Of a stretch of 64,000 nt of DNA, positions 3,583-57,951 are shown piece after piece; position 1 is the stretch's first letter; each line of letters starts with the position of its first letter. Source of the DNA: Taxawa tesnikishii (nom. ined.) (Eukaryota > Ascomycota > Dothideomycetes > Dothideales); contig JAPDRO010000023.1 of assembly GCA_030247885.1 (NCBI GenBank), positions 124,001-188,000 of the forward strand. The letters run 5' to 3'. Both the position numbers and the translations under genes were made by a program. The notes under the pieces were generated by a model. It was not told the origin of the DNA, made no database searches, and was given only the letters and a program-made list of their open reading frames with translations.

Positions 3583-5340
3583 ATGCGCGACCTTACGACG
3601 ATGCTCGCCCTGCCCGCGTCACTTATCGTGTTGCTATGCGCTTCGTCCGCTCTCACCAACGGCCAACGCCAGCCTCACGAGAAATACTGGCCAGAGCATG
3701 AGGAACGGATGAAGAGGGACTCGGAGATCCAACAGAAGCTTGTACTAAACGCTCCAGTGGGAGTGAGAAAGATGAGCGAAGATGAGGGGAGAAGTTCTTT
3801 CTCGATTACTGGCAATTGGAGGGACAGGATGCACCGGATCCATCGTCAGCGCAAGAGCCTGGAACAGAGATTGGCAGGATTGCCCAATCACGGGGGCCGG
3901 TCCTTGAGGATGACTTAAAACAATATCAGAACGGATCTGTATCGTTGCCGTTACATCCACCGTTTCCGCTGCATGCCGATGCCGAGCAACGGTCCGGTCC
4001 CCAGAACTGGTTCTTTGCGCGTAGTCTCTTCCAGCGGGACTTCCAATGCCCCAGCGGGACCAGCGATTGCTCGTCAATTGGCCAGAAAAATTCATGTTGC
4101 CAGACCGGAGAGTCATGCGTCAAGATCACAGACACTGGTCTAGGTGATGTGGGCTGTTGTCCGGCAGGACAGACCTGTGGTGCTTCGATCAGCAGTTGTG
4201 ATACCAAGAACGGATATACCAGCTGCCCGAACAGTCCCAACGGCGGATGCTGCATTCCAGGGTATGCGTGTCAGGACGTAGGATGTAGGTTTTCCGTGTG
4301 TGCGTGTACTGATGTAATATGCTAACACTCCTCAGGCATTCTCGTTGGGACGCAGACAACAACTACAACGCTTCCTACGGTCACAGTCACGGGAATGTCC
4401 ACGTCCATCTCTTCTGATGGCACCAGGACAGTTACGTACGTCGTTTCCGCTGCTGCAACTCCGGCATCTCCTTCCGTTCAAACTGTCACGACGACCTTAA
4501 TCGTCGCCCCTTCATCGACTGCAGCTCAAGTCACTACCGTCACACAAACTTTAGTCGTGACACCATCGACAAGCGCCGCTCCGTCCACAACTTTGATCGT
4601 CCAGGGTCCGTTGACATGCAGCTCCGGTTACCAGTCCTGTCCCGCTACCCTTGAAGGCGGATGTAAGTCTCCTGTTCGCGCATCTACCGATATATGTACT
4701 GACACTTCTCAGGCTGTCCCACCGACCGCGCCTGCGGATCCGCAAGTTGTCCCCCATCTTCAACCACTGGCGTTGCCGCGCCCCTGTCCGCCCGACCAGC
4801 GACTCCAGCACAAGTGTTCCACCAACAGCCACAACTACAACCGCTCCATCATCATCGGTGACGAGCACAGTCTCCTACTCCGGATGTCCCACAGGCTTCT
4901 ATATGTGCAGCGCGTACTACATGGGTGGATGCTGCAGAGTTGGACGGAACTGCGATACCACGTCCTGCCCCGCCTCTGAGAGCACTTCCGTCATCCAAAC
5001 TACCGGCCTCACGATCATTGCACCGAATGGTGCGTCTTCGGCCAGCGGAGACGGCGTCGTCACTATCACTAGTACCACTACGCCTGGCGCTGTTGGAACT
5101 GCGTCTGCTGCGCAGAGCCAGCAGGGCAACTGCGCGAATGGGTGGTTTAGCTGCGCTGCTGCTCAGGGTGGTGGGTGCTGTCCTTCTGGGTACGTGTGCG
5201 GTGCGAGTTGCACGGCAACAGTCAGTGGGCAGAGTGATGTTGGAAAGGCTGCGCCGAGTGGTGCCGAGCACGCTGTTTTCTTGGGATGGGCGGTGTTGTT
5301 GGTTGGGTTGGTGGCGGGTGCAGGGATGGTGGCGCTTTGA
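3583..5340 (+). CDS. Cysteine-rich GPI-anchored surface protein, four C-rich modules
   Basis: Predicted secreted wall or membrane protein. It starts with a signal peptide (MLALPASLIVLLCASSALTN around residues 7-26). After a conserved stretch around KMSEDEG and FFLDYWQLEG come four cysteine modules, each with a GGCC- or GCC-type core: CPSGTSDCSSIG...CCQTG...CCPAGQTCG, CSSGYQSCPATLEGGC, CPTGFYMCSAYYMGGCC and CANGWFSCAAAQGGGCC. They are joined by Ser/Thr-rich linkers. The C-terminal hydrophobic tail FLGWAVLLVGLVAGAGMVAL is typical of a GPI signal. Exons are 3583-4284, 4336-4662 and 4713-5340; both introns split a cysteine codon of the motif. Two one-base breaks interrupt the frame: at GGGG 3786-3789, between KMSEDEG and EKFFLDYW, and at CCCC 4781-4784. 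With these allowed for, the product is about 552 aa. Function unknown. Confidence 0.8.
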
Positions 5341-5505
5341 AGCATAGGTATGGTTATGGGATTTACGATACCCGTTCATAAGACTGAAGAGGCCCGAAAA
5401 CAAGGAAGACCTCTGGTAATCATAGTTCCCAGTAAAGGGTCAACACAAAAAGCGATCACCGCACGTGTCAGACAATAAGACCCAGATGGAATGCGCAGGT
5501 CCCCA

Positions 5506-6182
5506 TCACAACAACCTCCATGCAATCCACGCCGCCGAGCCCGCATCCAACACCAATCCAAATCTAGCTCGTGTCCAATCCGTGCTTCCGAATACCAACC
5601 ACTCGCTCCCCCAGTGCCAGACCGCAGCGCTTAGGGTGATGAGCGCCGCGACTTGTGCGCCTTGATCGTCCAAATGGAGCGCAGCGTAGCTGGCAAGGGT
5701 CAGTACACCATGGAGACTCGTAGTATTATAAGCGGAAACAGAGCATGTGCCCGTTCTCAACAGGCTATCCGGAGCACAGGTTGACTCTCTACAGGGACAT
5801 GGTCCGCAGAGAGCTTGGGTCGTCAGCAACGAACGGCTCAACATGCGGAGACCGTGGATCCTTCTGCTGTCGAGTGGATGACTTGTTGAGAACAACTTGC
5901 GTCTGACACTGTTCATTGAGGGCGACTGGGGCTACGTACAGACGAACGGCGCCGGACATGAGCGTCCAGGTACCGAAGATGCGGTTTAGCAGAGGGTTAG
6001 TGTGGCGGATGGCGAGCGGGTAGCTGTTGTGCGTGTACGTTGGAGAGGTGTAGCAGAGGAAGGTGTTGAGGAAGGCAAGGAACGCCATCTGGACGCGTGA
6101 TTAGAGACGGCTGTGCATGAGCAATGGGGCGGAAAGGGGGACTGCTTACGAAGAGAAGCCAGTATGAGAAGGGGTCGGCCAT
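5506..6182 (-). CDS. ERG28: Erg28-like ergosterol biosynthesis scaffold protein
   Basis: ER membrane protein that tethers the C-4 demethylation enzymes (Erg25, Erg26, Erg27) to Erg6 in sterol synthesis (family role). Exon 1 (6150-6182) encodes MADPFSYWLLF. Exon 2 (5940-6088) continues MAFLAFLNTFLCYTSPTYT, then the hallmark RIFGTWTLMSGAVRL. Exon 3 (5506-5788) holds VWHWGSEWLVFGSTDW and ends WIAWRLL. The hydrophobic helices and the FGTWT and SEWLVFG motifs fit the family. The chosen introns (6089-6149 and 5789-5939) give 154 aa, close to the 148 aa of yeast Erg28. The acceptor of intron 2 is the least certain point: the chosen one keeps the frame but adds about 15 residues that I do not recognise. 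Confidence 0.85.
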
Positions 6183-7453
6183 TGCGGGCGTTGAGCTGGG
6201 AGGAAAGCGCGTACAGAAGCAGTTGGTTCCTGGAGAGACAGTAAAGCGGACGCAGCGTGATTTTGGGGTTGTACGAAGCATGGTTATACCAGACCTTATA
6301 ACACGGCTTACAACATTGAGCGGTCTCTGGTGGATGGCCTGAATCCTTCGCGTGACACAGTGCGTTCAAGCTTCGATAACCAGCCCGAACTCAGAGACTG
6401 CTCGATCAAGATACAACTGCATTGCAACTGCTGTCCATCCCTTGCTAGCTGACACTGTATGAGACTTTGGAACCTCGGGAAGACCAGTTCATGCTGTATG
6501 CTGAAGCTGGGCACTACTATTGGTCCGTCTGGTTGCAGACGTGGAGCTGGCACGCTTCTGAGCTGTCCGCATGATCCAGAAATTACTCAGTACCGCCAAC
6601 GCATGCGAATCTTTATGGAGGAGGGTAATGACGACGATGAATGGACCCTCGGCTCTCTATCACATGCAAACATGTGTATAGTGGACGCGGTTGAAACGCG
6701 CAACTTTACGCGGATGGCTTGATCTGGTTGGACCAGGCAAGGAAGCTCTAAGCTTCTTTGTTTGGCCCGTTCCTTCGGGCCTACCCGACTACAGGTATGT
6801 TCTTGGAGGTACGCAGCCCTCAACGCAATTGAGGCAGCACTGTGCAAAGTTCCAACTACCCCGAACAGTACGTGTATGTCCTGTAACATGAGACGAATGG
6901 CTGATGTGCAGTAAATGACAACCATCCAGTATAACCTAGAAGCTTTGTATATGCGTGTTTGTGAGGGGCGCACAACGTCATATCAGGCATAGTCACGGTC
7001 CGACCTTAACTTAAACTGTCCTTGCCAAGCACCAGGAAATTGGATCCGATCGTCAACTCTCACATCCACCATCACGACTCCACACTCGACCGTGCCACCA
7101 ACCTCACCTTCACCCCGCCTCGAAACGAGATCCCAAACCCAAAACCCCCGACCGAAACGAAACGAGCACTGCTGTTGCCGTTGTTGATTGCCATTGCCGC
7201 CGCCGCGTGCCTCGAACCGGACAATCGCTATAACCACAAATAGCGTACACTAACACGACTGTGCGCGTCTAGATACTCGAGGGAGGTGAACCCCCAGCAC
7301 ATTCTGTGCGAAAGAGACAAGAGAGGGAGAGAAACACGCAAGAGTAGGGTATCTGATCAGCTCCTCCATGGAGCAGACTGGGCTCCTGGCCATATCGCTT
7401 GCACCTTTGAGGACGAGTTACTAAACGTCTTCATAGCTTGCGGTCGAGCCAGA
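6183..7453. other. Intergenic region between ERG28 and the carrier gene
   Basis: About 1.3 kb separating divergently transcribed genes. Several short open frames occur on both strands, but none has recognisable family similarity, plausible splice structure or codon bias, so I call no gene. No tRNA fold was found. Confidence 0.6.
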
Positions 7454-8746
7454 ATGCCTCAGCCTGCCGGAGGAGACGGCAGCTCTGAGAAGGATGATAG
7501 GAGCCCGGACAAGAAGATGCTCTATTGGGGGTTCGAATACACTATGAGCCCACAGACCAAGAGATTCCTGAAGGACCACCGCACTCCGGTCTGCTCCATG
7601 GGCGCCAGCCTTGTCTCTACCTTCGTCGCGGTAAGTCTGCACCATGATCCAACTGCACCTCCAGTACTGACCTTCTCCAAAAGTTTCCACTAGACCTCGT
7701 CAAGTCGCGTATGCAAGTGCACCACACTGGATTCCTCGAGACGACCATCTACGCTTACCGCAATGGAGGCATCAAGGTCTTCTGGCGCGGTAAGTTTGCC
7801 CAATGAACCGCGAGCTCAAACATGCTGATCGTTGAAACCAATGCAGGTGTTGTGCCACCCCTCATGTCCATCATGGCTGTTCGCACGGTGTCCATGTCTG
7901 CATACCAGAAGTTCAAATACTTTTTCGACGATGTGATCTACAAGGCTACCGGCACCTCCCCTCTCGCGCAAGCCAACGCGCCCAACGCCAAGCCGACTTT
8001 TCACACTATCCTCTGCTTCGGCCTCTCAGGTGCCGCCTCCGGCGCCCTGATCACTCACATCGCGTGTACGTATGTCTGTATCAACAGCCGACGAAACTAC
8101 TGACATTGCGCAGGCCCGTTCGAACTCACAAAGATCAATGCCCAGCTCGCAGGTTCTGCTTCGGGTAGCATGTCCGACAAGGCGCTGGCCGATGTCAAGT
8201 CTGGTGCCTGGCGCACTGCGAAGCGTCTCGTACGCGATCGCGGATGGCGTGGCCTCTACTGTGGATACCGTCTTCATCTGGGTTAGTTGTAAGATGGTTT
8301 TGATCAACGGGAAACTAATTGTCTGCCTTCAGCGCGTGACACCATAGGCACCTCGGCCTACTTTATGACCTACGAGAGTGCAAAGCAGTTGCTCAGCAAC
8401 TCGCGTGGTCACTCACCATCACACCCTGGCGCCGTCGCTATCGCAGGTAGCATCTGTGGTATTGTATCGTGGGCCTGCGTGTATCCTCTTGACAAGGTCA
8501 AGACGGTTTTCCAGAAGAATCAGCTGTCCTCTGGAGGCACCAACACAATCCGTCCGAAGATTGAGTGGTTCACCAAGGACTCTTACCGAGGTACGACAAG
8601 ATTCGAGGTTCTTTGAATCTCAGTAGCTGATCATGTTTGCAGGCTTGGGTGTCTCGGCTGGTCGCAGTGCTTTCGTCAACATGATCTTCTTCTCGGTCTT
8701 CGAAGCCGCCAAGAGACGGGTCAATGCACTGGAGACCGATGACTGA
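7454..8746 (+). CDS. Mitochondrial carrier family (SLC25) transporter
   Basis: Inner-membrane solute carrier with three repeats of about 100 residues. The carrier signatures are PLDLVKSR (repeat 1, just after the first intron), PFELTKIN (repeat 2) and PLDKVKTV (repeat 3). The protein starts MPQPAGGDGSSEKDDRSPD, has no cleavable presequence (usual for the family), and ends FSVFEAAKRRVNALETDD. Six exons are joined by canonical introns: 7454-7630, 7684-7789, 7847-8065, 8114-8281, 8333-8590 and 8643-8746. Together they make 343 aa in one unbroken frame. The ATG at 7454 is chosen because the upstream in-frame extension has no ATG. The substrate cannot be read from the sequence with confidence. Confidence 0.93.
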
Positions 8747-10064
8747 GCGGCATCACTCCTTCGACATCTAACGTCGGCTTCTCATTTTCACGGCCTTTTT
8801 CACCCACTTCAGCATTCTCGACGCGGAGATACATATGCAGGCATATGGCGTTCTGGGCGGAGCGATTGTCTAACCACGGTGGGAATTTTTGGAAAAGGAG
8901 TTTTTCGGCGGGCAAAGTGGGATACCAATGGAGCATTCGGGATGTAAAATACTTTCTCTTGCGCGGCCAATGGGCCAGCGCGACATAGTGATGAGACAGA
9001 CAACGGATCGCAATGGCCGCTTCTGCATATGAATTCCAGGCCAAGAGCGCCATGTTACTGCTTCAACAACAGTTCTTCCGTCTCTTCCGTTCCGTGTAGG
9101 TGCCGTGCCGTGCCGTGCTGTGCTTGTTGATGTTCAGCCCTGCTGGATTAGATGTGCAGTGTTCGCCATGCTTCTCGACCGTGTCACAAGATGAAGTTGG
9201 ACACGGCTTGTTCCCGCAGCGCCCTAAAGCCATACCCAGCCATCCGGTAACGTAAGCCCGACCATTGTCTTTCCCTACCGCTCCCTCAATTGACCCATTG
9301 AACTGTGGCTCTTCACAGTACTGAACAAGAGTACCGATTGCAAAGGAGTACGACCGCATCCCACCGCCTCTCGTGTCTCTGTCACCAACTGTTTGCTACA
9401 ACGAATACTAAGAAGCATTGAAATGCCGTTTTTCCCTTTCATTTGTTCTTGATGAAGTCGAGTCAGCTTACGCGATCGAACGGTCGGCAACCTGGCCAAG
9501 CGAGGCTGTCTCCCAAGCAACCGATATGCTTGTTGATGCACCCCACGCATTGTACAGGGACTCAAACCTGAAAGCAGCGACAAAGCCGGTGCTTCCAAGA
9601 GACTCCATGGCGCAATGCGACTACTAGCGGCTCGAGTTGCTCCGGCAGAAGTCTAACGCCTCGTAACGGTGGTCAGTGTTGCTGTCCTGAGCCACGATTG
9701 GCGGTTCGAGGCCTTCTGTCGCATCCTCTACCGTGGCTGGTGCAGCGTGCGCCTCTGTTTACCTTCACCCGCCAACCCTGCACGCTTGGCCGCATGTGAA
9801 GGCACCTGCAGCCAGTCTCGTATTTTCTGCCCATTGTCATTGTATACTTGTCAGCCCCGCCCGATACTTTTCAGCATACACAGCCACTCGTTTTCCTGAT
9901 ACTCCGCATTGTCGACGAACTCCCTCCTCCACTACCAACACAGACCAAGAAAGTTGGAAGAGGAGGCATTGCTGAATGAGATGATGTGTTAGACGACCTT
10001 TGTACTATATTCGACCTCTACGTGTCACAGACCGCATTCTGGAATCGTTCTCTCGCGCTCTAAA
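8747..10064. other. Intergenic region with a short GCCGT tandem tract
   Basis: About 1.3 kb with no supportable gene. It contains a short pentanucleotide tract (GTGCC-type units, the last imperfect) at 9101-9124. The part next to 10065 is probably the leader and promoter of the kelch-like gene. Confidence 0.6.
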
Positions 10065-13000
10065 ATGCCTCGAAACGGGCATCCTACGCAAACATTGAGC
10101 CTACTGGCGCTCTTTGCTGCTCGAATAGCGGCAGGCTTTCCGTACAACCCCACACGCATATTCCTTTCACAACAGGACGACAGGGACATCGCCTACGTCT
10201 TCCAGCCGAACGGAGAAAATGGCCAATTCCTCTCACTCGAGATCAGCAAGTTCTCTTCGATCTCTAACCTACCACTTCAGACACTGTATTCCTCACTGCC
10301 TTTCACGGATTCAAGCACTTCGACAGCTTTCACGCCTTTCCTAGACGAGAGTGGAAACATCACTGTTCTCGCCGGAGACTGCACATCAAGCGCGAATGGA
10401 GCTGAACTGTGGAGATTCACGCCGGATGCGCAGGCGCAAAACGGCAATGGCTCATGGTCGAAAGAGACAGTATCGCCGCACGATGTCGCCGGAGACGCAA
10501 TGGCCGGTTCCAACTTTTTGGGTGCTGGCGTTGCATTCTCGGAGATGGTGGGTGGTGGACTGGAGGATACAAGCCTGTACATGTTTGCTGGCATGTGTCC
10601 TACAGCGGGTGCTACGGTGGCCAACTGGATCACTGCGGCCACTTACTCCAACTTCATGGTCACACTGGCTCCGGAAGACGCGACGGAAGCACCAACGGAC
10701 TACAAACTTGGACTTACTTCCACCCGCGGACCACCAATTGCAGAGGCGGGATTCAGCATGACGGCTCTACCGGCACTGTCTGGAGCGAACACGAGCAGCG
10801 GCCAGACCCAGCAGCAGAACTTCGTGCTTCTGGGTGGCCACACCCAGACTGCCTTCATCAACATGTCACAGGTCGCGCTGTTCTCGCTCCCCCAGGAGAA
10901 CTGGGCCTTCCTGCCTGTGGATCAGCCTTCATCGGCGAAGACGGACTTGGCCAAGAGAGACGCTGCAGTCGAGATTGAACCAAGGTCTGGCCATACTGCC
11001 GTACTTTCTGAGGACGGCAAGAGCATCATCGTTGTGGGTGGCTGGGTGGGCGATGTGACCACAGCGGCCACTCCACAACTGGCCGTCCTGCAGCTGGGGT
11101 CCGGCTATGGTGGTGATGGAGACTGGGAATGGAGCGTTCCGGATCAGACGGGAGTCTTTGCTTCGTTGGGAGCAGGTCTTTACGGACACGGTGCTGTCAT
11201 GCTTCCGGGAGGCGTCGTCATGATCATGGGCGGATACACGATTTCGTCGTCTGCATCGCGCTTGTTCCGCCGCGACAGTCAGGTTGCGAACACGAAGTCG
11301 CTTTTCTACAATGTTACTTCGAACACGTGGCTCTCTAGCTACGATCCTCCTGCTACAGTAACGGCAACCTCGGCGCAGGACAACAAGTCTGGTGCTCTCA
11401 CCTCCAGCTCTCAGAAGGCAGGTCTCGCGGCCGGTCTCACGCTCGGATTCGTCATCGTCGTCTGCCTGCTACTCTTCTACTTCTGGTACACTCGGCGACT
11501 AGGTGCCCGTCGTGACAAGAGAGCGAGCGACATGAGGCACCTGGTCAACCATTCACACGATTTCGACGACCCTTTCCTAGGCAAGACCGGTATAGATGGC
11601 CGTGGTGGTGATATCTACGCCGCAGATGTATGGGACGAGGAGGAACGCGCTGCTAGGGAGCACCCTTGGCTGCCCAACGGCCAGCCTCCTCCTGGCTGGA
11701 AGAGTGACCAGGCGAGAGCCAGAGAGGTTGAGCGGACCGGTCTCTTCGTTAACATCCCGAGTCCAACCAGAGGCCTGAGAAGAGGCCTCACTACCAGAAA
11801 CAACTTCCAGTACCACGCAGCGCCTAGATACGATGAGAGTCGGACGAGCCGCCACAGTGGCAACATCCACCCCATCGAGGAGATTGAAGAAGAGGCATTA
11901 TCACAGCTCGGCTCTCCACGCATGAGTGAAGCCGAGCGGAAGCTGAAGGCGCTTGAAGGTGTCTTCGGCGACGACAACCAGCGAAAACTGAGGGCCGCTG
12001 CCAGCATTCTCTCCGAAGACGCAGCGCAGGATCCGTTCAGGGATCCTCTTCCCAACCCTCTGGGCAGTCACCCCGTTTCGCCAGATCTCAGCCATCCAGC
12101 CAATGCCAACATTATCAACACAATCAAGCGGGTCCCTACCAACGCCAGTCACGCCGCGCCTTCGTTGTTCAACCCCAACGCCGAAGAGCGGGAGAACCTG
12201 GCCAACTGGGTCAGCGAATGGAGCCACGCTGGCGGTCTGTTACGCTCAGCAACCCTCCCCAACGGACGGGTCTCTCCGACCAAAACTGACGACCGCACCT
12301 CCTCGACCCTGAGCGAGCAATCCAACCGTTCGAACCTCTCTGCCAACTCCATTGCACGCACGGCATCGACACGTACAGCCGCCATCTTCGGTGCTTCAAC
12401 AAACCCCTTCGCATCCCCTCAGGCCTCGCCGTCCGAAGAGCGCACCTCCTTCCTCCAGAGCGGGCGCAAGTCCCCTTCTACTACAACTCACGCGCCCGCT
12501 CAGCCACGACCTCGTCCGTGCGTCCCGCCGTCCCGGACCTCCCACCCCAACACGACCGGTCCGATTCCTTCACCACCGCGCGCAGTAACTTTGCCCAGCT
12601 GCAGAGCGAAGGCGAAGCCCTCCTCGGCCCCTCCGGCGACACGTTCACGCGCGGCCACCGCCCCCAGCTCAGCGACACCACGTCCGCGATCCTTCGCGAC
12701 GCAGGTCCCGCACCCCCGTACCCCCGCGCCGGAGGCTGGGCTGGATGGGCAGCCTGCGGCGCGCGCTGAACGGCGGCGGCGGCGACGACCGCAGCGTCAG
12801 CGCAACAACGGCCAAGCCCGGCATGCCGCAGCGCTACAACACCGTCGATCGCAGCTCGTCCAGCAGTCCGACCAAGTACCACTACTACCAAGGCGCGTCG
12901 GCCGCGCCACGACGCGCAGCTAGCGACGGCGGCGCGTTGCTGCGCGCCAAGCGCGGGAAGCACGACTGGGAGGCCGAGGGGGATTCGTGGCCGGCGTACA

Positions 13001-13343
13001 AGGATGAGCCGGACGGGGGGACTGGGGCGAGACGCCCGCTGCCGACCCCACCTCGCCATCCGGGGACTCGATTGAGCGGGGAGAGGGGAGGGGAGGAGAG
13101 GAGGATTGGGATGTGGAGAAGGCGGCGGCGAAGAGGGACGTGCAGGTCATGTTTACGGTGCCGAAGACGCGGCTGAGGGTCGTGAATGCGGATGTGGAGA
13201 AGGCGAGCCTGAGGAGCGTGAGTGATGGGGGTAGGAGCTTGGATATGTCTGGCGGCTTAGGCGTGGAGAGAAAGGAGAGCTTGAGGGAGAATGGGGTCGA
13301 GGAAAGAGATATGATCCAGATCAGAGAGGAGAAGGACAAGTGA
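10065..13343 (+). CDS. Kelch/galactose-oxidase-like single-pass membrane protein
   Basis: Large type I membrane protein with an extracellular beta-propeller. A signal peptide (LSLLALFAARIAAGFP) is followed by about 400 residues with kelch-type Gly-Gly turns such as NFVLLGGHTQTAF, SIIVVGGWVGDV and VVMIMGGYTISS. One transmembrane helix (LTLGFVIVVCLLLFYFWY, near residue 455) leads into a long Ser/Pro-rich cytoplasmic tail containing SEAERKLKALEGVFGDD and, at the end, VQVMFTVPKTRLRVVNA. Three one-base breaks lie in the tail: CCCC 12472-12475, where KSP should continue FYYNSRARS; GGG 12738-12740, before GWMGSLRRALNG; and the G-rich stretch 13078-13095, before EEDWDVEKAAAKRD. With these allowed for, the product is about 1093 aa with no intron. 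Fungal relatives exist, but I know of no defined function. Confidence 0.82.
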
Positions 13344-14584
13344 GGAGGGTGTGGTTTTATGTTTTCTCTCTTCGAAACGGCCTTTTCTGGTGGGACCGAG
13401 AAAGAAATTTTTGGCGTTCTTCTTGGGCGACTTGGGGAAATGGGTATATTGAAGTACGCAGGGATTCCTCTCTTGTTTGGTCTCCTGGAAGCGCTGTGGT
13501 GCTTGGAGGAGGACAAAGGGGGTTCCTGCCGCGCGTGGCTGTTCATATGGGGAAGTTACGTAGATAGCAGTTAGTGCCGGCCAGGTACATGATGTATGAT
13601 CTCTCCCTACTATTGCTGCACCACTTGGAGCCACCCAACCTTCCTTGATCCGGTACATTGTCAATCACATCGTGATCACTCACGTTGCCCTCGTGCTGAT
13701 GCAAACGGAGCAACACGCTCTCCACTCGGGAACAGAAGGATCGGTCACCCGCTGATCCGCCAGATCACGGCCGGCAGCAGTCGGCGTCTTCTCTGAGGAT
13801 CAGCTCGCGACCAATGCTGACAACAAACAGGGCCGAATCTGGCTGCCGGTCGAGGTCGCGGACCCGCAGGACCGCAACGACCTGAGCTGCACATTTGCTC
13901 TTAGCCAACGTACCCGGATGATATGGCGGAGAAGTTACACGTTTTGGCTGGAAGAGGCGGCGGTGAAATATAGCGAGTATCAACCAGCGGAGACGACAAC
14001 GTCGGAGCGGTGAGCAGTGCAATAGAAGTAATGCAGCGGCTAGAATCCCCTTTTCAAGGTCATAGCCGACGAGACGGAGCTCTGGCGGGAATCGACCGCT
14101 GTAAACCCCACCCCTAACCCCCTCCTTTTGAGGCAATGGCCGGTGTGTGTCCTCTTCGATGACAAGCCCGTGGCTGGTTGCTGTCAATGGGGACCACGTG
14201 GTTGCCCGGTTTCACAGGAAGCCGCTTTCGCGATGTATTGTGCAACCATCAAGCGGATCTGTCCTTGATGGACCTCGCCCGCGTCCACTGTTTCGAAGAG
14301 GTGTGTGCAGAGAAGCGATCTCAGAGCTTAGAGGGAAGAAGCGAAGCTGACACGGATTCGTGGAAACGCCAACCAGCCAGGTAGGTAGGTAGGTAGGTAG
14401 GTCTACAGCGACGGTGATTCGATGATCTTGCAACGAACGAAGAATACTCTCGAAAGTTATTGTCCGCGTCTACAATGTTGCAGATATTGTACATGGCTCA
14501 TACTACTATACAAAGCTATGGTACAGAATTATCCGACACCAGGTATCATGAAAAAGATGTCCCAAACACCAATCGTGAGAGGCA
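13344..14584. other. Intergenic region with an AGGT microsatellite
   Basis: Space between two converging genes. It contains a (GTAG)n tract at about 14380-14402. Short frames at 13765-14187 and 14147-14350 show nothing recognisable. No gene is called. Confidence 0.6.
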
Positions 14585-16540: not shown

Positions 16541-17568
16541 GATTTCAGCAGGCCTTGGCGGAGAATGCTGAAGGAGGAGGGGTGATGGAACCAGGCGGGG
16601 GTTCTATATATCTAAGCCAGCGGGCATGGCGGATGTCTCAGTGGCATAGACGAGGACTGAGGTCATGTTCCGTGACATATCCGATGTGCGACTGCCTGTC
16701 CAATGCGCACGCTGCACCGAGAGCAGAGTCGGGGTGGATGTGACCACTTACGTCATGTACTTAGCGTTGTTCCATGGCAGAAGACGACGTTGGAGCAAGA
16801 AGAATAAAGTAGACACATCCGAGCGCTATGCTTAATGCCTGCTCGCAGCCTCTCATTCGTCCGCTCACACGCCAAGGATCTGCGGCACACCTACGGCCGG
16901 TGAGCAGCCGGTGAGCCCTGACGCCGAGCAGCCACCGATTGCATGCATCGGGAAACAAACGTCATGCCGGGTGTTCGGTGCTCGTCTTCCTCCCTCACAA
17001 ATTCCAAAGTCAAGACGCGTGATTATCAAGCATACAGCGAGCGAACAAGCGAGCAGAGCGAGAGACAAAAACTCTGCAAACCCTCTGATGGACCGCATCG
17101 TTCTCGGTGGAGACGCGGCATTTGTACCCGTGCCGATGGCCCCTTTGCAATGAGCTTCTGCTGCAATCTCGCACCGCCTGACTGTCACCTGTCCGCACGC
17201 GGTGGCCATGCGCCTCCACCGCCTCCACCGTCTCCACCCCTTCTTCATCCTGCCGCGGAGCCAGAGGGTATGACGGCAGCAGAGTGTGAGAACAACCCTA
17301 CCGGCCGAAGAGTTCCAGCTCCCCCGAAATGGCTCGTCAGGTAACATTGGCTGAAAGGAAGGGATGTGGTTTAGCTATTCAAAATATATCCTTCGTGTGT
17401 GTGTTGTCTATACAGAACTTGGCCGGACTATCCTCTGCGGGATTCGACTCGACGAGAACAGGACTCGGCGCATGGAGGCAGAGCCTCGTGATCGTGCAGG
17501 TGCTCAGTCAGAACCATCATGTGCAAGGTCGAGCAGGATGCCGCTCGCTGAAATCTTATCGCACCCTC
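16541..17568. other. Intergenic region
   Basis: About 1 kb between the MFS gene's 5' end and the 3' end of the GNAT gene. It should hold the MFS promoter. Frames on either strand are short and uninformative. Confidence 0.6.
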
Positions 17569-46757: not shown

Positions 46758-46853
46758 GACGAGAGTGGGATTCGAACCCACGCCCTTTCGGACTGCCGAT
46801 TTCAGAGTGGAAGCTCCTTAAGACAGCGCCTTAGACCGCTCGGCCATCTCGCC
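46758..46853 (-). tRNA. tRNA-Leu (anticodon AAG) with a 17-nt intron
   Basis: On the minus strand the acceptor stem GGCGAGA pairs with TCTCGTC (one G-U). The D arm is TGGCCGAGCGGTCTAAGGCG, a leucine-type arm. The anticodon stem CTGTC/GGCAG encloses TTAAGG...C, giving anticodon AAG, with a 17-nt intron (AGCTTCCACTCTGAAAT) after position 37, the canonical site. A long variable arm (TCCGAAAGGGC) marks it as class II. The T arm is GTGGG-TTCGAAT-CCCAC. It decodes CUU/CUC leucine codons. The CCA end is not encoded, as usual in eukaryotes. Confidence 0.95.
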
Positions 46854-47457
46854 CGATTGCTGTACGATGGTAAATCAATTGGTAACATGTCCCTCAACAA
46901 ACAGCAGCATTACCGATCCAAGATCGGGCGATGCGTGCAGTGCCCAGAATCGTTGTTCTGTTCTGCTGAAGAGAACTCTACTGTGCCAATCAAGATTCCT
47001 TAGTGCATTTCTTTTGTGGTATAGAACTAGAGAGTCCCGTTGGTCAGGGGCTGGCCATTATCATGTGCCAGATGAGTGGCTCGAAACATTCTACTCTTGC
47101 AGGGAATGTCCGCGTGCTCGGTTATTCGAAATGCATGAATCATCCAAGACGTCTAGGAGCTTGAGTGAAATTACATAGAATGAAAACTACTCCCTGAGAT
47201 GCTTATTTGTTCAACCGAAGATAAACCAACGTTTAGCTTTTGTTTTGGCTTGCCGAAGTAAGCGAGCAGTAGCCGAGATCTGGAGATCTGGAGATCTAGG
47301 TAGAGAGCTTCACACGCGCTCACCTGGACATAGTACTCAAAATTCCACCGCGACCTGTCAGCAGTAACAACGGCGTACTGCCTGCTGCTGCCACTGCTCC
47401 GCAGAGTAGAAGTCCCAACTAGTGTCAATTCTCTGGACAGGAGCGTACTACCGAATC
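46854..47457. other. Intergenic region between the tRNA and SPF45-like gene
   Basis: About 600 bp holding a short direct repeat (GAGATCTG units, 47275-47300). It probably contains both promoters. No gene is seen. Confidence 0.5.
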
Positions 47458-49356
47458 ATGCCTTCGCTGTACGCAAACCTCCTTGACCCGAAAGCGACGT
47501 CCGAGGCCACCATCTCCGGTGCGCCAGTCAAGTACGAGTTCAAGCCGCAAGGATTAGACGGCGCGAATGACGAAAGAAAACCTGCAGACGGTACCTGAAA
47601 AATGCCTCCCCATGGCGTTCCGCATGTGAAAGGCGCATTGCTCACTTGTATGCGTTTTGCTGTGTAGCCTCTCTTCGCTTCCAACCTGTCAAGAGGCCCC
47701 AGGTGGCTTCGAACAAACCCAAGCCAAGGAACATTCCATCATCCAGCTCTCCGGATAAGCTCCCAGAGACTCGCAAACCACCTCCGAGTACTATTGGAAA
47801 CGCGAACTCGATACAGAAATGGACCGCTCAGGACGACGATGATGATGATCCGTGGGCTGCTGAATACCAGAGACGCTTGGAAGAAAAGAAGGAGGAGCGC
47901 AAGGCGAGGAGAAAGAGCAAGAAGAACAAGAATGCTGTGCGCTACATCGACTGGGACGCCGTGTACGACCCAGAAAAGCCTACCAATCCGAAGGACTACA
48001 AAGGCAGTGAAGAACAAGCGCAGGCTGAGGGTGATTGGAAGCAAAGACTGCACGCACACCAGTTCAAATTATGGCAGAAGCGCGAGCCTTCGGAGGACGA
48101 AGGTATGGATAGGGACACCCCAAGATATCGTAAGCATCCACCGATGAGCACGTTCATGTCGAAGGTTACTGAACACGGGACAGGTGGTTTTGCGCCGCCG
48201 ACCAACTATAATTTTGCACCACCAGCAGAGCTAGATGCAGCAGTTAGGGAGCAACCTACACCTCCGGCAGACGATGATGATGATGACTACTACGAGCCTC
48301 CGCCGGTTGCCTACGAACCTCCACCAGTTGCCACAGTCTATGATGATCCTACGGGCGAAGATGCTTATGCCCGACGTATGCGTATGAGTGGTATTTCGAC
48401 CGCTACTAACGATCCTCCACCGCCTACCTCAGTCAACGAAAGCTCCGCACCCCCACCTCAACCCGCAGGAATGTCACGACTACCCCCACCCCCAGTCGAG
48501 TCGCCACCACCTGTACTAGGTCAGCAATTCGTCGCTCAGACGCAATCTGCGCCAACGCCACCAGCACAAATGGGCGCCATCATTTCTCGCGAACCGGTTC
48601 GATACATCCCGCCGCAATCTTCGCCGCCTGTTTCCGCAGCAGCAAGTGCCACCATCTCGCGCGCTCCAGTACGCTATGACGTCCCCGCAAAACCATCGCC
48701 ACCCCTGCAGAAGACGAGGACACGGAAGCTGAACAGTCCCACGGTGGTCTTGGTCTAGGCGCTGCCGCGGATGTGCCACAAGATGACGAACCCTCACCTG
48801 CACCAGACGAGGACGCCCCTCGCTCCAACCGTCCCGGTCAGAAAGGCTTCGCCAAGCGTTTGCTGCAAAAGTACGGCTGGCAAGAAGGCGAAGGCCTGGG
48901 AGCTACCGGCTCTGGTATCACCACTGCTTTACGCCACCAAACCCAGAAGCGCAAGAAGCGTCCCGATGCCGAGGGTGGCGGGTGGGCCAATCCGGCTGCT
49001 ATGGGCCGCATTGTCGGTGGTAAGAAGCGCAGGACCGAGGACGAAGAAGGCGGGCAGTGGAGCATTGTCGTCAAGCTTGAGGGCATTCTGGATGGCGTTG
49101 ATGTCGATCATGCTGTATCGGAGGGTAATCTGATGCAGCAGATTGGTGATAAGATGAGCGAGTATGGACAGGTTGAGAGATTGTTCATCGATCGCTCGAA
49201 AGAAGGAACGGAGCCAGTGTTCGTCAAGTTTACGAGTGCGCTGAGCGCGTATCGGGCGGTTCAGGCAAGCAATGGCACTGATTTTTGGCCAACGGTCGCA
49301 TGGCGAGGGCGGGCTTCTTCGATGCGGAGAAGTTTGAGCAAGGGGACTACGACTGA
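47458..49356 (+). CDS. SPF45/RBM17-like splicing factor (G-patch and RRM)
   Basis: Nuclear pre-mRNA splicing factor; SPF45 proteins bind 3' splice-site factors through a U2AF-homology RRM. Exon 1 (47458-47590) starts MPSLYANLLDPKATSEATIS. After the intron (47591-47667), exon 2 gives LRFQPVKRPQVASN, then a basic stretch, YIDWDAVYDPEKPTNPKDYK and a long proline-rich linker. The G-patch is LLQKYGWQEGEGLGATGSG. The C-terminal RRM has YGQVERLFIDRSKEGTEPVF and ends GFFDAEKFEQGDYD. Two one-base breaks: CCCC 48702-48705, before AEDEDTEAEQSHGG, and TTTTT 49282-49286, between GTDF and LANGRMARAGFF. With both allowed for, the product is about 607 aa. Confidence 0.92.
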
Positions 49357-51156
49357 TGAATCAAGGAGCCTGCAAACAGGGGATAACGTATGGAGACGGA
49401 AGTGCCGTTTTTCAGGTTATCCTCACGACACTCGGAAACCTCTGACACGGACGCCTAAGAGCGCTTGGAACATGCTGTAGTACTAGTTCATGAACAGGAA
49501 CTTTGAAACTGTATGGTTATGAAGGCATATGGACGTTGAGCAGTGTATCCGCAGTTCAATAGCACTATGGCAGTTGGCGACAGATGCCAAGAGTCACTCG
49601 TGAGATTGTCTTCAATAACATAGTATGTAGGTCACTGAGTTGCTGCAAGGATCAAGCATCCACCAGCGGGGGCAATCAGCAACCTGTCATCCTTCTCTTC
49701 TTGACTACCTTCTTCAACACAGATGGCGTCGGCCAAGCAGCATCTGATGGAATTACAGTGCTTGCGACACTTCTCACTCTCATGGCAGAGTGATCGACCA
49801 AGAACGGCTTCATCAGCTCTGACCTTGCATTATCGGCAGTCCTGGCAGCGACAGCATGTGTCTTTACCACTTGCATGTCGTGCAGCACACTAAAGTTGAT
49901 GTTATCTGTTAGTACCGGTACAAGAGAATTATACGTAGATCCAGATGCCACTACCGGCTGCAACCAGGCCTTGAGCCGCTGTGGAGTAAAGATTTCGAAA
50001 CGATGCAGTGCGAAACATCCGGCCACCCAGGATCAATCGCTGCACGACTGGACGCGTGTTGCTCGGTGATGCACAAAGTGCACCAGTCAAGCGAGCATTC
50101 CGTGTCTGGGCCCTTCGTGGTGGCTTATATCTACGATAGAGGTAGGCCTTTCCTTCGCTTCCTTCAGTCGAATCCCCTTCACGGAGCTGTGGAGTCTCCA
50201 GTATTGCTTTATGCGAATCCAACGCCCCAAGCAGTAAATACCGATGGACCGCGAAGAGGGCGCCGAAAGTATTCCGGAGGAGAGTTAACGACAAGGGTGG
50301 GCCTTGCCTTGACGGGCTCACTTCTCTCACAACAGAGAGAGGGCCTTCGGAAGTGCGACCGGGAGAACACCGCAGACGCGTCCTGCAGGGCATTACGATA
50401 TGGAAAACTATACCACTACGTTCCGTTCCCTCCCTTCTCATACCCTTCCTGTTCATGGGGAGAAGACAACTCGCTGTACGACACAACAAAACGCTTCACG
50501 AAGACATCGGCATGAGCCTTGTGCATCAAGATCATTTCCAACCTCTCTCCTCTTCCGTTACTCTACTGACCCGCTCACATGATGGCTTAGTTCTGTGCCT
50601 AACTGTCTTGTCGCGCCATGGATCGATGGGCATGCCGTGTAAAGAGGAAGACCCAGCATCGAACCCCGTACGGTGTAGCCCTTTGTTTGCAGCGGATCTC
50701 GTGCGTCTCGCGCAGGAGACACGTGTGTGCAAGTCGCGATTGACTACTGAGGAACGACGATTTTGAGAAGACTCAATTCGTCTCAGTGCGACTTCACGAT
50801 TGAGGCAAGTCGTCATGGAATCTGTCTCTTCACCTGTTGAAGAGACGCGTTCCGGAGAGGGCTGTTGCAGTGGACTATGGTAGATAAGACGAAGGAAGGA
50901 AGATAGGTTTATGGGGGAGAAAGTTAAGCTTCGATACGAGCTGTATATGTACGTCAAAAAGAGCCTGCGGCCTTGAAAAAGCTCAAACCGCAAACCGTAA
51001 TCGAACAAGCAACATGAATATCCAAGAACCAATCCTCGATCAAAATCCACTCATTAGTACATTGTCGCGTTTGCCATAGTGAACAACCAGATAAACCACA
51101 TATTACCACTCAACCATCTCCGATCTTCTCATACGAAATTGTTGTCAGCCGATCGC
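49357..51156. other. Convergent intergenic region
   Basis: About 1.8 kb between converging genes. Frames at 49929-50489 (-), 50003-50515 (+) and 50532-51050 (-) overlap each other on opposite strands and show no known domain. No gene is called. Confidence 0.55.
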
Positions 51157-53241
51157 TTAGAGCATGAAAGCCGCGGCGACGATCATGGCCGCGAAGCCCA
51201 TGCCGGCCTTGAGACCGCTGGCAGCGCCAGTGAAGGCCTGGACACCGGTGGTGGAGGCGGCAGGGCAGGACGCGCCACCAGAGCACTGAGCAGCACCAGA
51301 GCTGCCGGCTGGGGTAGTGGCGGCAGCTGGGGTGCTGGTGGCAGTGACGATGTTGGAGGTGAGGAGCTCGGTGCTGACGGCGGTGACATAGGTGGAAGCT
51401 GGGGCGGAGACGGTGCTCAGGATGGTGGTCTGAGCAGCTGGGGCAGTTGGAACTGGGTAGTTGACAACAGTGGAGCCAGCTGGGCACATCTGGGATCTGT
51501 GTTAGATCAACGAGCGGGAGAATGAAGCAAGAAAGGGCTTACCGAAGTGGTGGTGTAAACGGTGTTCATCTGGGTGACGGTGGCAACGCTGGCAGAGAAG
51601 ACGTTGACGGTGACCTGAGCGTATGGGCAGCCAGAGCAAGCAACTGGAGTTGGGACAGCGGTGACAGCGTTGGCAGTAGAGGCACCAGAAACTGGGCAGA
51701 CGGTGGTGTAGAGAGCAACAACATCGGTGACAGTGGCAGGGCCGTTGCGAGCTGGACAGTCGGTGACAGTTGCAGCGCAGCTGGTGATGGTGCGGAGGCT
51801 GGTGGTGTAAACGGTCGAGGTGGTCATTGGACCGGCAGCACCAGAGACGACACCAGAGCCCTGGACAGGGTTGGCAGTGACAGCGCCAGTGCCAGCAGCG
51901 GTAGCGGGGCAGACCTAGGACAGTCAGTTCATATGGATCGTGATCTTCGTGCCAGGAGTAACTCACAGTGGTGTAATCGACAACAACGCTGGTGACAGTG
52001 GCAGGCTGGCCGGCACGAGCAGGGCAGTCCTAGTAGTCGCTTAGCAAGGAAACTTAATTTGGCATCTCGTGCAATCAACATACCGTGACGGTTGCGGCGC
52101 AAGAAGTAATGGTCTCAACCTCAGTGCGGTAGACAGTCGAGGTGGTGTATGGCACAACGGTGGTGGCAATTGGGACAGCAGTCGTGATAACGGTAGTGCT
52201 GTCAGCTGGGCAAGCGACTCCAGGAGCGCAGCGAGTGATGGTCTGGGTCTGAGTGGCGAACTCAGTAATGGTCGCGCTGGAGGCAGCAGCGCCAGTAGTG
52301 GCAGCGGCATCATCGCCGGGCAGGACGAAGGCAAAGTCGATGCCCTCAGAGTAGTAGGCGCCACCGATCTCGCTGAAGTAGGTGCAGGTCTCAGCGTTGG
52401 TGTCGAAGGCAGTGGCAACACAGCCAGCAATAGCGTCGCACCCTGTCAAGCAGTTCTCGAGGCTTGGGTTCTGGACAACAGCCTGGCGCTTCTGGAGGGC
52501 GTTCTCGGTGCGGATAATGGTACCAACGTGGTTGCGGTTGCACTCAATCATGTAAGACCTTCCGTTCCTGTCGGCGTAAGCCTGCTCATCAAGGTATGGG
52601 CAGAACAGGTCCACAGTGGCAGTGGCGGTAGGAGCGGAGGTTGTGTTGGTTGGGCGCACACCGGTAGCACCTGGCATGGTGCCAGATGGGTACATACCAG
52701 TGCCGTTGCCTGTAGGGTAGCTTGGGAAACCAGTGGATGCCATGGCGCTGGAGCTGGTGGAAGCGCTTGGGACCTTCTTGGCGAACTCGACGCCAGCAGC
52801 CGCGGTAGTGCCAGTGATGGCGCTAAACAGCTCGCACTGCTCAGTGTTGGTGTTGAAGGAGGCTGCCACGCAAGCATCGCCGAGGGTAGAGCAGGTGGTC
52901 AAGCAGTCAGAGAGCGAAGTTGGGCCAGTGGCTCTCTTCTGGGTGGTGTAACCAGCTGCGTTGTAGTTGAGGAGGACGCCGATGGCGTTCTGGTTGCAGG
53001 CAATGCTGTACTCGACGTTGAGGCCATCCTTGGTGGTCTTGCCGTTCAGCTGAGGGCAGAACTGGTCCGGCTGCGCAGTGGAAGTTCCGATAGGCAGACC
53101 GCTAGAGCCGGATGGGATCACCGAGATGGTCGCATTCGGGTAGGAGTAAGCCGAAGAGCCGGAAGCACCTGGAAGGGCAGAAACGGAACCGCAGTAGGCG
53201 AGGATTGCTGCCGCAGCAGAGAGAGTCATGGACTTGGACAT
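51157..53241 (-). CDS. GPI-anchored surface protein with two PAN/Apple-like modules
   Basis: Secreted wall protein, 641 aa. A signal peptide (LSAAAAILAYCGSVSALPG) is followed by two related cysteine modules of PAN/Apple type. Each opens FCP-L, with IACNQNAIGVLL in the first and IECNRNHVGTII in the second. Each continues CLTTC/CLTGC, then CVAASFNTNTEQCELFS or CVATAFDTNAETCTYFS. A Thr/Ser/Val-rich stalk follows with a duplicated unit ITSCAATVTDCPAR. The C-terminal tail GLKAGMGFAAMIVAAAFML fits a GPI signal. Exons are 52084-53241, 51967-52029, 51543-51914 and 51157-51489, in one unbroken frame. PAN domains bind protein or carbohydrate, so an adhesion role is plausible but inferred. Confidence 0.87.
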
Positions 53242-56137
53242 TATGGCTGTTGATTAGGTATTACGGTTGAGTAATGAATGAGTGGACGGCCGCGGCCAGA
53301 AAATCACAAATTAGAACGAAGGGGTAAAAAGAGCTGAAAGAGCTGATTGCTTGTTGTGCTGATGTGAGTGGATGAGAAAGAAGTTGATCGAGGTATTAGA
53401 GAAGAGGATATATAGCTGAGCTGAGTGGCAAAGGGGTGCGAACCCACAGTTCTTATATGCATGGCCGTTAAGCTTCTGTAGGAAAGAGATGACGGACGTT
53501 GACCAGGAGAGAGACGGTGTATCCTACCGTTGCATGTTCGTATCGTCGCCAAGCAACAATTGTACAACGCCTACTAGACACTGGGACTGTTGTTTGTTGC
53601 AATCTGAGGAATGAGCACATTGCGCGCAGGTGCGCAGGCGAGCGGCGCCTGGATGGTTTGATCGATATACTCCTTCATGCAGGAGAGAAGAGGAAACGAG
53701 TGAATGTCAGAGATTGGGTCAAGCTTCTTCTTACCCACCACAAGCGGCATAGCGCCATGCGGCTCAGCGGCACGACCCCCATACTTCCGGATCGGGAACA
53801 AGCTTGTTTTTGCTGCAGCCCCTTCAACCTACATGATATGACACGACAGCCCCGGTGATGGCCATGTTGCTGTTTGTTTGCTCAACACACACATTGCCCG
53901 TTGCGGACATCTCAACAAACAAAGAACGTTGCGTTTCAGCTAGTAGGGGTCTCCACTCGATGCAATAACATCACAACCTCCCTACAACGGCCAGCCAATC
54001 TCGTCAGGTCACCTCTTCTGATTGTGGCCGCTGGGAATATCCTGATTATAGCAACCTCGTAAACAACGTCTGCCAAGTTTTTACTCGGAATCGTCCCATT
54101 GTGGAGCTAGCGCAGCAGATCTCAATGCCATCATCACCACCGCTCTTCTCGTAGTTGGTGTGTTTTTCCGCACGGCGATGCTTTCCCGGGTCGAGGTGGT
54201 GGCTACTGTGCCCCGACGTCCCCATGCATAGAAGAGGAGAGGAGGTGGGGCTGCCTGGATGTCGCAAGCGGGCTTGTTGTGGGCTACGGGCCGTGGCCGT
54301 ACTTTCTCCGCGATCCACTCCCTGCGCACCAATGTACCTCTCCTGAATATCGCTCCACTCCCGTTGACAGATGAGGTCAGACAACGTTACCCTTCGCGTG
54401 CGGCTGTAAGACACCCTTTCAGGCTATTACCTTACTGAAAGGCCTTTTCGCACGAGCACAGAGTCTCATACGGCTTTGTATGGCCCGATTGAGGGCACAG
54501 TGGCGATCGCAATCGTACAATTTTCTTGGAAATACTGATAGTGTACCAATACAGGCGGGTCAGCTGTAGGAGTCCTCTAAGATTAGAAGCCCAGCAATCG
54601 TCCGATGAAAATCTGAACACCAACGGGGATCAGCAGACATGCCCTGCAAGACTCTGTCATCGGTTGAGGGTTTGCTGTCACGATTTACGAGCGCACGTGC
54701 TCGTCTTGATCACAGTGCGGCAGCCTGTACAGATCTGGAAGGGCGACGGAGCCAATCCATGGCTTGTTGTCATGCCGCATGGAAAGACGACAGATGCTGC
54801 GTACGCAGATTCCATAGGGGAGAGCTTGTGCATCGTGAGGTTTGAGAAAGGGCTCACTACTTCGTCGACCATGAGGAAAATCGCAGGTGTCGGCCGTCTT
54901 CCTTTGAAGCCTGAGGTGGAGTGGTAAAGGCAGTTGATATGCCTCTGTCGACGCAGAACAGTCACCACTGGTCAAGGCGCGTGTGTTTCCTAAGCAGCAC
55001 CAGAAGGAATGCTAGCATAACCCTCACATTGCCGCTTCATATTCTTGACTTACGTTTACCATGTCATGTTGAGGGTTCTCGACCCTTCTCACCTCGATCG
55101 GCCGGGTCTCAGGTCAGTTATCTGTCAGACCCTGCAGCGCGTCGGACCCTTCAAAAGTTCAAAGCATACCGAGACATGCACGCGTGCACCTGACGTCTTG
55201 ATCTTCGTCAGCGGGAGTGGCGAGTTTGGAGACATGTCCAACATTCCTTCATACTGGCTGTGTCCAGGTTTAAATAGTACCAGGAATTTATTATCTCACA
55301 AACCCCATATTGTGGGAGTGCGATAGCACGCCAGCTGCCACCGCTTAGGCTTTCCACTCCGTGACCGCAGGTGGCGTTGCTGGGTGCAAGATGAAATAGG
55401 ACAAGTAGCTCAGTATAATGTCATTTTATCGTGAAGGACAAGAACTGTGTGGGTTTCTGGGGTATCGCAATGTTCGTGCCAGGTTTTCCTGCCAGCCCAC
55501 GACAGTAGCTATACTAGTTCGTTTGATAACTGGCATACAGCCAGTCATTACCAATAGGGCCGTAACGCGGATATAGATTGGAACCGATCACCATGTTGTT
55601 GAGAGGGTTGAGTGTCGAGATGATCAGCTTGCTGAGTGTCATTGAGCAAGTCGCTGAAGTGACAAGAGGAGCTGTATACATCTACAGTGGAACTACGCTA
55701 GTGGTGGCGGTGCGAGCTCGTGGCCAACCCAATTAGGAACTACTTATCGCATAGCAGCCTTATGAACAGGCTCTTTATGGACAGGGAGGATGATCAGTCT
55801 TCAAAGTGTGACAGAGCAAGACTGTCATCTCGAGCGTCAAGAACCACTACTCAACAACTGTGCTCAGCACACCAGAAAATGAGTGGGGAACAAAGGAGAT
55901 AACACAACTTTCGTCTATGTGCGTTCTCATGACATATCAATCATGCAATGAGCCTGTGTGCTGTTCCTCCAAAAGAAGTAATGTTAAGAGAGCGACAAGA
56001 AGATTCTAGAGGGTTTTCAAGACATTCATGTCCTGCATGAATGCCTCTCATTTTTCCATCCCACCATTCTCCATCGCGCACACCTTGCACCAATGCACCT
56101 GCTGCTTTGAACTCTTGTTCGGGGTGAAGAATAGCGT
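53242..56137. other. Gene-poor intergenic region
   Basis: About 2.9 kb with no supportable gene; AT content rises at 55300-56000. The part just above 53241 holds the promoter of the PAN-module gene, including a TATATAG at 53409-53415. The frame at 54526-54927 lacks recognisable features. Confidence 0.55.
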
Positions 56138-57951
56138 TTAGAGACCGGCAGCAGCGACGACCTTTTGAGCTGCAGCAGCAGTATCGCTGCCGTAGTCAAG
56201 GTGAGAGCCCTGAACGTTACTGGGGCCACTAGCGCAGATCGCATCAGATTGACCGCAGACCTCGATTGTCTTGTCGGCTGGGACGCCTTTGAAGGCCTGG
56301 CCGTTGAAGGGATCACCGAAAGCGACGACAGCGGCGGCCTTGCTGCAGTCGAAGGAGCCGCAAGCGTTGTGAACGACCATGCCACCCTGGGAGTAACCAC
56401 CGAGCACGAGCTTAGTCTGAGGGCACTGGGAGAGGGCCTGCTGGGCGAGCTTGGCCATGGTAGGACCACCGCTTGCGCCAAGGTTTGCGTTACCGGCAGC
56501 ATCGGCGGGGTAGTCGACGCCCTGGACGGCGAGAGTGTGAGATCCGAGGGCGGACTTGAGGCCAGACTCGAGACCAGGCCCGACGACGTAGCCCAGCGTG
56601 CCTGGCTCACCAGTACCACGCGCGAAGACGAGGGTCATGTCTTTGCAGCCAGTGTTGTCAGTAACGTCGTTGGGGCTGTTAGAGGAGCCGCCAGAGGAGC
56701 CGCCGAGGAGAGAGCCGAGAGAACCCAGAGAACCGAGGCCGCTAGCGGCGCCAGAAGATTGAGCAGAGGAGGCAGCGGGGAGGGCGGCGGTGCCAGTTGA
56801 GGCGGTGCCAGTCGAGGAGCCGGTCAGGCTAGTGGTGCCAGTTGCACCAGTGCTGCCGAAGAGAGAGCCAAGAGAGGCGAGGCCAGAAAGGCCAGACGAG
56901 CCGCTACCGAGAGAAGACAGACCGCTGAGGCCGGAGGAGCTGCCTCCCAGAGATGAAAGACCGCTCAGACCGGAAGAAGAACCGAGCTGACGCTTGCGAA
57001 GGCTGCCACCACCAAGGCCGCTGAGGGAGCTAAGGCCAGAGCTGCCACCGCCGAGGGATGAGAGACCGGACAGGCCCTCACCACCGCTCAGCGAAGAGAG
57101 GTCAGGTAACGAGCTTGACCCACCGCCGAGGGAAGCAAGGCCAGGGAGACCCGAGGAGCCACCCAGAGCAGACAGGCCTGAGAGGCCAGACGAGCCACCA
57201 AGAGAGGAGAGGTCGGGGGCGCCGGTGGACAGGCTGCCAAGCCCGGAAAGACCAGAGAGGCCATTGAGACCCGAGGTGCTAGTGCCGCTCAGGCCAGAGA
57301 GACCACTTAGGCCGGAAGAGCTGCCACCGAGACCTGAGAGCCCGCTGAGCGAGCTCAGATCTTGACGCTTGGCGTGTTCGCGGGAGCCGTACCCGTCGCC
57401 TCCGTATTCACCGCCGCTAGTAGCGGAACTGGCTGGACGAGGTGGTTGAAGGAGGGAACCGGTGCCGACTGGAAGAGGAGGGACGACGCCAGTAGGCAGG
57501 GCAACGCCGGCACCGTGGAGCCCTCCATGGCCGCGGAGGCCTGTGGAGCCAGAGCCCGTAGCATCAGCACCAGCATCGGCGCCGGCACCGTCACCAAGAG
57601 AAGCAGAACTTCCAAGAGAAGGAAGGCTAGGGAGAGGCCGCCGGAGAGACCAGCACCACCACCGAGAAGGCCACCAAGAAGACCACCCTCGCCCTCGCCC
57701 TCGCCAGAGGCGGAGCCAGAGCCACCGAGGCCACCGAGGCCACCGGAGAGCCCTCCCGCGAGACCACCCATGTCGCTGCTGCTGTGGTGTCCGGAGTAGC
57801 TTGTTATGGATGGGAGGTCCGGAGTAGTAGCACTGGCGCTGCCGTAGGTGCTAGCACCGCCGTACTGCTCAGCGCGCTTAAAGCTGTCGACAGGAGCGCC
57901 TGCGACGAGGACGGCGCAAGCGAGGGTAGCGGCGGTGAATGAGTACTTCAT
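56138..57951 (-). CDS. Cutinase with a long Gly/Leu/Ser-repeat N-terminal domain
   Basis: Secreted serine esterase of the cutinase family, hydrolysing plant cutin or similar polyesters. The signal peptide is MKYSFTAATLACAVLVAGAP. From about residue 27 to 430 the chain is almost only Gly, Ser and Leu, with units such as SSGLSGLSSLGG. It is punctuated by dibasic Kex2-type sites: SFKR (about 26), HAKRQ (about 197) and RKRQ (about 320). The catalytic domain starts near TGCKDMTLVFARGTGEPG. The nucleophile is in LVLGGYSQGGMVVHNAC, the aspartate in EVCGQSDAICASG and the histidine in GSHLDYG, with paired cysteines. One base is missing near 57640, in the CTCTCCCTAGCC stretch. Allowing for it gives about 604 aa; ordinary cutinases are about 200-230 aa. 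Confidence 0.88.

What the first reader, a model, noticed from the sequence alone, without database searches (positions are those of the whole stretch)
3786..57645. About 20 one-base deletions, nearly all in homopolymers, across 11 genes
In eleven genes family-type sequence continues on both sides of a break but in another frame, and each break is mended by assuming one missing base. Sites: 3786-3789, 4781-4784, 12472-12475, 12738-12740, 13078-13095, 16268-16271, 17658-17661, 17709-17712, 18472-18474, 23632-23635, 27094-27097, 34354-34357, 38519-38522, 38764-38767, 42167-42170, 43262-43280, 43916-43919, 48702-48705, 49282-49286 and about 57640. All are losses, none gains, and nearly all lie in runs of three to five identical bases. 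Both strands and essential genes (SPF45-like, PNKP) are affected. This fits under-called homopolymers in the assembly far better than pseudogenes. Automatic annotation would split or truncate half the genes here.
Basis: partly seen in the sequence, partly recalled or inferred. Interest (0 to 1): 0.75.

Follow-up and report, generated by a model that had tools for sequence, protein, structure and literature searches.

The report
Sequencing error shortens base runs
About twenty gene breaks in this stretch of fungal DNA are really in the sequence, but are almost certainly sequencing errors that drop one letter from runs of identical letters, so the genes themselves are probably intact and ordinary.

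Summary
The window is fungal-looking nuclear DNA. Planted losses and gains were found equally (96 of 96 each). Protein relatives continue across the four breaks searched. New here: run lengths in the whole window fall smoothly to five and then collapse: 7 runs exceed five, 19-37 expected. A cap at five is published for k-mer-based nanopore base callers (PMC5889714, passages). The breaks prefer CCCCT/AGGGG (11 of 18 intervals, 0.96 expected), equally in both orientations to the gene, which speaks against ribosomal frameshifting.

The parts
3786..3789 (+). frame break in a Cys-rich secreted-looking protein gene (about 3580-5340), at a run of four
   Evidence: 90% interval 3786-3789; frames; not called by the decoder
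   Evidence: not called by the decoder
12416..12473 (+). break in a kelch-type protein gene (about 10065-13343)
12723..12761 (+). second break in the kelch-type gene
13009..13025 (+). third break in the kelch-type gene; reader placed it at 13078-13095
16267..16277 (-). break in a sugar transporter gene, just after an intron (intron by eye)
   Evidence: alignment across it; Pfam Sugar_tr; the decoder explained it by a longer intron
17658..17689 (-). break in an acetyltransferase-like gene (name recalled; no Pfam match)
   Evidence: gene not decoded
17698..17710 (-). break in the same gene
   Evidence: small margin; gene not decoded
18449..18495 (-). break near the start of the same gene
   Evidence: gene not decoded
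23635..23669 (+). break in a PP2C-type phosphatase gene
   Evidence: Pfam PP2C
27094..27097 (+). break in a PNKP-type polynucleotide kinase-phosphatase gene
   Evidence: ungapped alignment to PNKP chains across it; interval 27065-27154 with small margin; gene not decoded
34354..34357 (+). break in a FAD monooxygenase gene, just before an intron (intron by eye)
   Evidence: ungapped alignment to 8gsm_G across it; frames; the decoder explained it by an intron
38498..38547 (+). break in a Tcp11-family gene
   Evidence: Pfam Tcp11 split over frames
38745..38791 (+). second break in the Tcp11-family gene
42215..42259 (-). break in a DENN-domain gene; reader placed it at 42167-42170; no run of four in this interval
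43263..43367 (-). second break in the DENN-domain gene, between uDENN and DENN
   Evidence: Pfam uDENN and DENN in two frames; not called by the decoder
43900..43948 (-). third break in the DENN-domain gene; sign not settled by codon statistics
   Evidence: disagree on the sign; frames; not called by the decoder
48688..48743 (+). break in an SPF45-like splicing factor gene
   Evidence: Pfam G-patch
49282..49287 (+). second break in the SPF45-like gene, in its C-terminal RRM
   Evidence: alignment to PUF60 chains across it
57596..57640 (-). frame change in a cutinase-like gene, described only
   Evidence: two open frames; Pfam Cutinase; decoder event at 57596
1..64000 (.). window-wide cap on run length: 103 runs of five, 4 of six, 2 of seven, 1 of eleven

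Best explanation
The breaks are consensus errors of the assembly: runs of five or more identical bases were called one base short. The probable source is a nanopore-only assembly from a k-mer-based base caller, in which runs longer than the k-mer cannot be told apart, so that run lengths are capped near five and a fraction of five-base runs, chiefly C5 before T (or G5 after A), come out as four. The genes in the organism are then intact. Shown here: direction, location in runs, run-length cap, context bias, and homology on both sides of the four breaks searched. Inferred: the sequencing technology, the true run lengths, and that reads would show longer runs.
For: 17 of 18 tested breaks are best read as one base short and 17 of 18 intervals hold a run of >=4 (5.2 expected; 0 of 5000 placements). 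Equal-cost decoder: 12 losses, 3 gains; equal power for both signs, 96 of 96 each. Homology crosses the break at four of four genes searched: PNKP-like, FAD monooxygenase, sugar transporter, SPF45-like. Run spectrum 36794, 9547, 1908, 456, 103, then 4, 2, 0, 0, 0, 1: 7 of 110 runs >=5 go beyond five, against 154 of 795 in 25 archaeal loci of 50-60% GC (Fisher P 0.0005) and 44 of 178 in 50 kb of E. coli K-12 (P 0.00005); means of 18.7 to 37 runs >=6 in Markov simulations of order 4 to 1, lowest single value 11. C4 before T in 11 of 18 intervals against 0.96 expected, with 6 runs in each orientation to the gene. [quoted passage not shown]
Against: No reads, RNA or close relative were available. 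The comparators for run length are prokaryotic, not fungal; the lowest archaeal band (60-75% GC, 5 loci) has 0.156 of runs >=5 beyond five, against 0.064 here. The codon model was trained on genes of the same window. Upstream frames and region limits were set by eye, and limits at four sites were changed after a first run. One site (43916) leans to the opposite sign, and one interval (42215-42259) holds no run of four. The C4-before-T class was defined after seeing the list. A fungal nanopore study found more over- than under-calling after polishing (PMC7500977, passages), so the direction depends on the pipeline.
Confidence: 0.93

Rival explanations
1. Real one-base deletions: a set of decaying genes, or a strain with a mutation bias towards run shortening.
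For: Deletions in runs are common real mutations (general knowledge).
Against: Eleven genes of unrelated, in part housekeeping function in one window; family residues persist on both sides of the four breaks searched; of three decoder gains two are not needed because the frame stays open and one is unresolved; the run cap also holds outside decoded coding sequence (A/T runs there: 142 of four, 43 of five, 2 of six, 2 of seven).
Confidence: 0.04
2. Programmed minus-one ribosomal frameshifting at many genes.
For: The direction is nearly uniform, and CCCCT/AGGGG recurs.
Against: An in-frame canonical slippery heptamer (second triplet A or T only) was found in 0 of 18 intervals; the recurring motif lies equally in both orientations to the gene (6 and 6), which translation would not be expected to produce; it does not explain the window-wide run cap.
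Confidence: 0.01
3. Short introns or wrong gene models mistaken for frameshifts at part of the sites.
For: The decoder explains 16268 and 34354 by introns, and four of its events at gene ends (2894, 14755, 24534, 42074) look like model errors.
Confidence: 0.02

Closest known systems
Homopolymer truncation in nanopore reads and assemblies (Jain et al. 2018, PMC5889714, passages seen)
   Same: cap of run length near five and more deletions than expected through truncated homopolymers
   Different: here inferred from the sequence alone; the C4-before-T preference was not in the passages seen
Nanopore-only fungal assemblies with broken conserved genes (Drechmeria coniospora, PMC7500977, passages seen)
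   Same: fungal conserved genes broken by errors in homopolymers (runs of four or more were counted there)
   Different: there polishing introduced more insertions than deletions; here nearly all tested cases are losses

Membership tests
homopolymer under-calling artefact (nanopore type) | errors are mainly losses | tested here: met
   17 of 18 sites; 12 losses to 3 gains
homopolymer under-calling artefact (nanopore type) | errors lie in runs | tested here: met
   17 of 18 intervals, 5.2 expected
homopolymer under-calling artefact (nanopore type) | run lengths capped near the caller's k-mer length | tested here: met
   comparators prokaryotic only
homopolymer under-calling artefact (nanopore type) | accurate reads show longer runs | not testable with these tools
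   no genome held and no read tool
programmed minus-one frameshifting | in-frame slippery heptamer at the site | tested here: not met
   0 of 18 intervals (second triplet A or T only)
programmed minus-one frameshifting | signal in one orientation to the gene | tested here: not met
   6 sense, 6 antisense
pseudogenes | gains as well as losses | tested here: inconclusive
   12 losses, 3 gains called; two gains not needed, one unresolved
pseudogenes | loss of coding constraint after the break | tested here: inconclusive
   homology on both sides at four of four breaks searched; 13 of 18 one-short readings score above noncoding, 5 do not; substitution rates not tested

The most novel reading that the evidence does not exclude
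The fungus has a real genome-wide bias that shortens runs to at most five bases, above all C5 before T, and expresses the affected genes by some tolerant mechanism such as transcript slippage.
Probability: 0.01. Interest if true: 0.85.

Novelty: not a real feature. Interest (0 to 1): 0.1.

Why it matters
It is a warning for annotation. A run-length spectrum of one window, with no reads, is enough to flag such an assembly.

Tried and rejected
The window's own genome is not held. No fungal relative was found: the GTDB scan with ribosomal protein uS12 listed 80 loci (of 418 relatives), all archaeal by their titles, and three viral-contig scans gave no relatives. So no close fungal comparison was possible.

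Decoder events not accepted: the loss at 2894 (an intron with a first exon upstream is the likelier reading, by eye); the loss at 14755 (unverified, at a gene end); the gain at 24534 (the frame stays open to 24290 and matches Steroid_dh nearly to its end); the gain at 42074 (the frame stays open to 41603). The gain at 47568, near the start of the SPF45-like gene, is unresolved.

Changed after a first result: the limits at 27094 reached into a probable intron and those at 49282 took in the gene's own stop codon, and 'one short' lost at both; I cut both regions. I also shortened the region at 12738 (no change in verdict) and at 43916, where 'one short' had won by 42 nats, probably through a stop codon inside a likely intron, and loses by 3.6 nats.

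A literature search for the CCCCT preference showed nothing on point among the 8 titles listed of 5810 papers; that is no proof of absence.

Full report
What the window is. Pfam scans show ordinary genes: AFG1-like ATPase, sugar transporter, kelch protein, TCF25, PP2C, steroid dehydrogenase family, FAD monooxygenase, Tcp11, uDENN and DENN, G-patch, PAN, cutinase, citrate synthase, HECT. The citrate synthase is closest to 2-methylcitrate synthase among solved chains. Short introns with branch-point-like motifs and the gene content suggest a filamentous ascomycete (recalled, not tested). The genome is not held.

The breaks. Three-frame translations of 19 sites show, by eye, coherent protein on both sides. 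I scored 18 sites with a codon model against three hypotheses: no shift, one base short, one base extra. Upstream frames and region limits were set by eye. One base short wins at 17 of 18. At 43916 one extra wins by 3.6 nats; margins are small at 17709 and 27094. At 5 of 18 sites the one-short reading still scores below the noncoding model, so the codon signal alone does not show coding there. In the first run one short won at 16 of 18; four limits were then changed, as told under Tried and rejected. The two sites left out are 34354 (next to an intron) and 57640 (cutinase-like gene, described only).

Independent decoding. A decoder with introns, both strands, and the same cost for a gain as for a loss called 12 losses and 3 gains in the window. 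It missed the other ten sites, mostly because it did not decode those stretches as coding. Two of the 3 gains are not needed, since the frame stays open; one is unresolved. Planted single losses and gains in eight stretches taken as unbroken were recovered with the right sign, within 90 bases, in 96 of 96 and 96 of 96 cases, so the excess of losses is not a matter of power; most of these stretches were also training data, and two of the eight showed a spurious loss at an edge before planting.

Homology across breaks. Four proteins were searched with an X at the break. PNKP-like: aligned without gap to PNKP chains (E 3e-5). FAD monooxygenase: aligned without gap to 8gsm_G, named 4-hydroxybenzoate decarboxylase (E 9e-56). 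Sugar transporter: aligned to GlcP and STP10 through the break region, where gaps lie nearby and spacing is less exact. SPF45-like RRM: aligned to a PUF60 chain (E 1e-5) with a three-residue gap just after the break.

Runs. Seventeen of 18 intervals hold a run of at least four identical bases; random intervals of the same lengths in decoded coding sequence hold one in 5.2 +/- 1.8 of 18 cases, and none of 5000 trials reached 17. By class: C/G runs of four before T (read on the C strand) 11 of 18 against 0.96; other C/G runs of four 7 against 2.3 (P 0.006); C/G runs of five or more 5 against 0.6; A/T runs 4 against 2.2 (P 0.18, not significant). The twelve C4-before-T runs lie six in each orientation to their genes. 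In noncoding sequence C4 shows no excess before T (53 of 147; C3: 211 of 593).

The cap. Over the window the number of runs falls by a factor of 0.20 to 0.26 per added base up to length five, and then by 0.04: 103 runs of five, 4 of six, 2 of seven, 1 of eleven. A geometric tail predicts 32 runs of six or more; 7 are seen (Poisson P 1e-7). Markov simulations of order 1 to 4 give means of 37 down to 18.7, with a lowest single value of 11. Archaeal loci of similar GC and E. coli K-12 show a much smaller drop (0.19 and 0.25 of runs >=5 go beyond five, here 0.064). This evidence needs no gene model and points to a limit of the sequencing method; a fungal comparator was lacking. Jain et al. report such a cap at five for nanopore callers of the k-mer type (PMC5889714, passages). 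Huang et al. say that nanopore systematic errors are mainly indels in homopolymers and shift reading frames (PMC8011154, passages). A fungal nanopore assembly had the same kind of damage, with more insertions than deletions after polishing (PMC7500977, passages).

Conclusion. The breaks are there, but as consensus errors. Nanopore as the source is inferred (about 0.7); under-calling as such is far better supported (0.93). Programmed frameshifting and pseudogenes are disfavoured for the reasons given under the rivals.

Noticed in passing
27816-28210: Inverted repeat with 58-base arms (95% complementary) 279 bases apart; looks like a small non-autonomous transposon.
   Followed up: partly
26965-27007: Perfect CT repeat of 21.5 copies inside what looks by eye like an intron of the PNKP-like gene; this two-base repeat is long although single-base runs are capped.
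   Followed up: no
46757-46853: tRNA gene on the minus strand found by Rfam and missed by ARAGORN, perhaps because of an intron.
   Followed up: no
25120-25130: A run of eleven G, the only run beyond seven in the window, in an intron called by the decoder.
   Followed up: no
window 1-64000: Break intervals prefer C4 before T or G4 after A (11 of 18 against 0.96 expected); possibly a base-caller context effect.
   Followed up: partly
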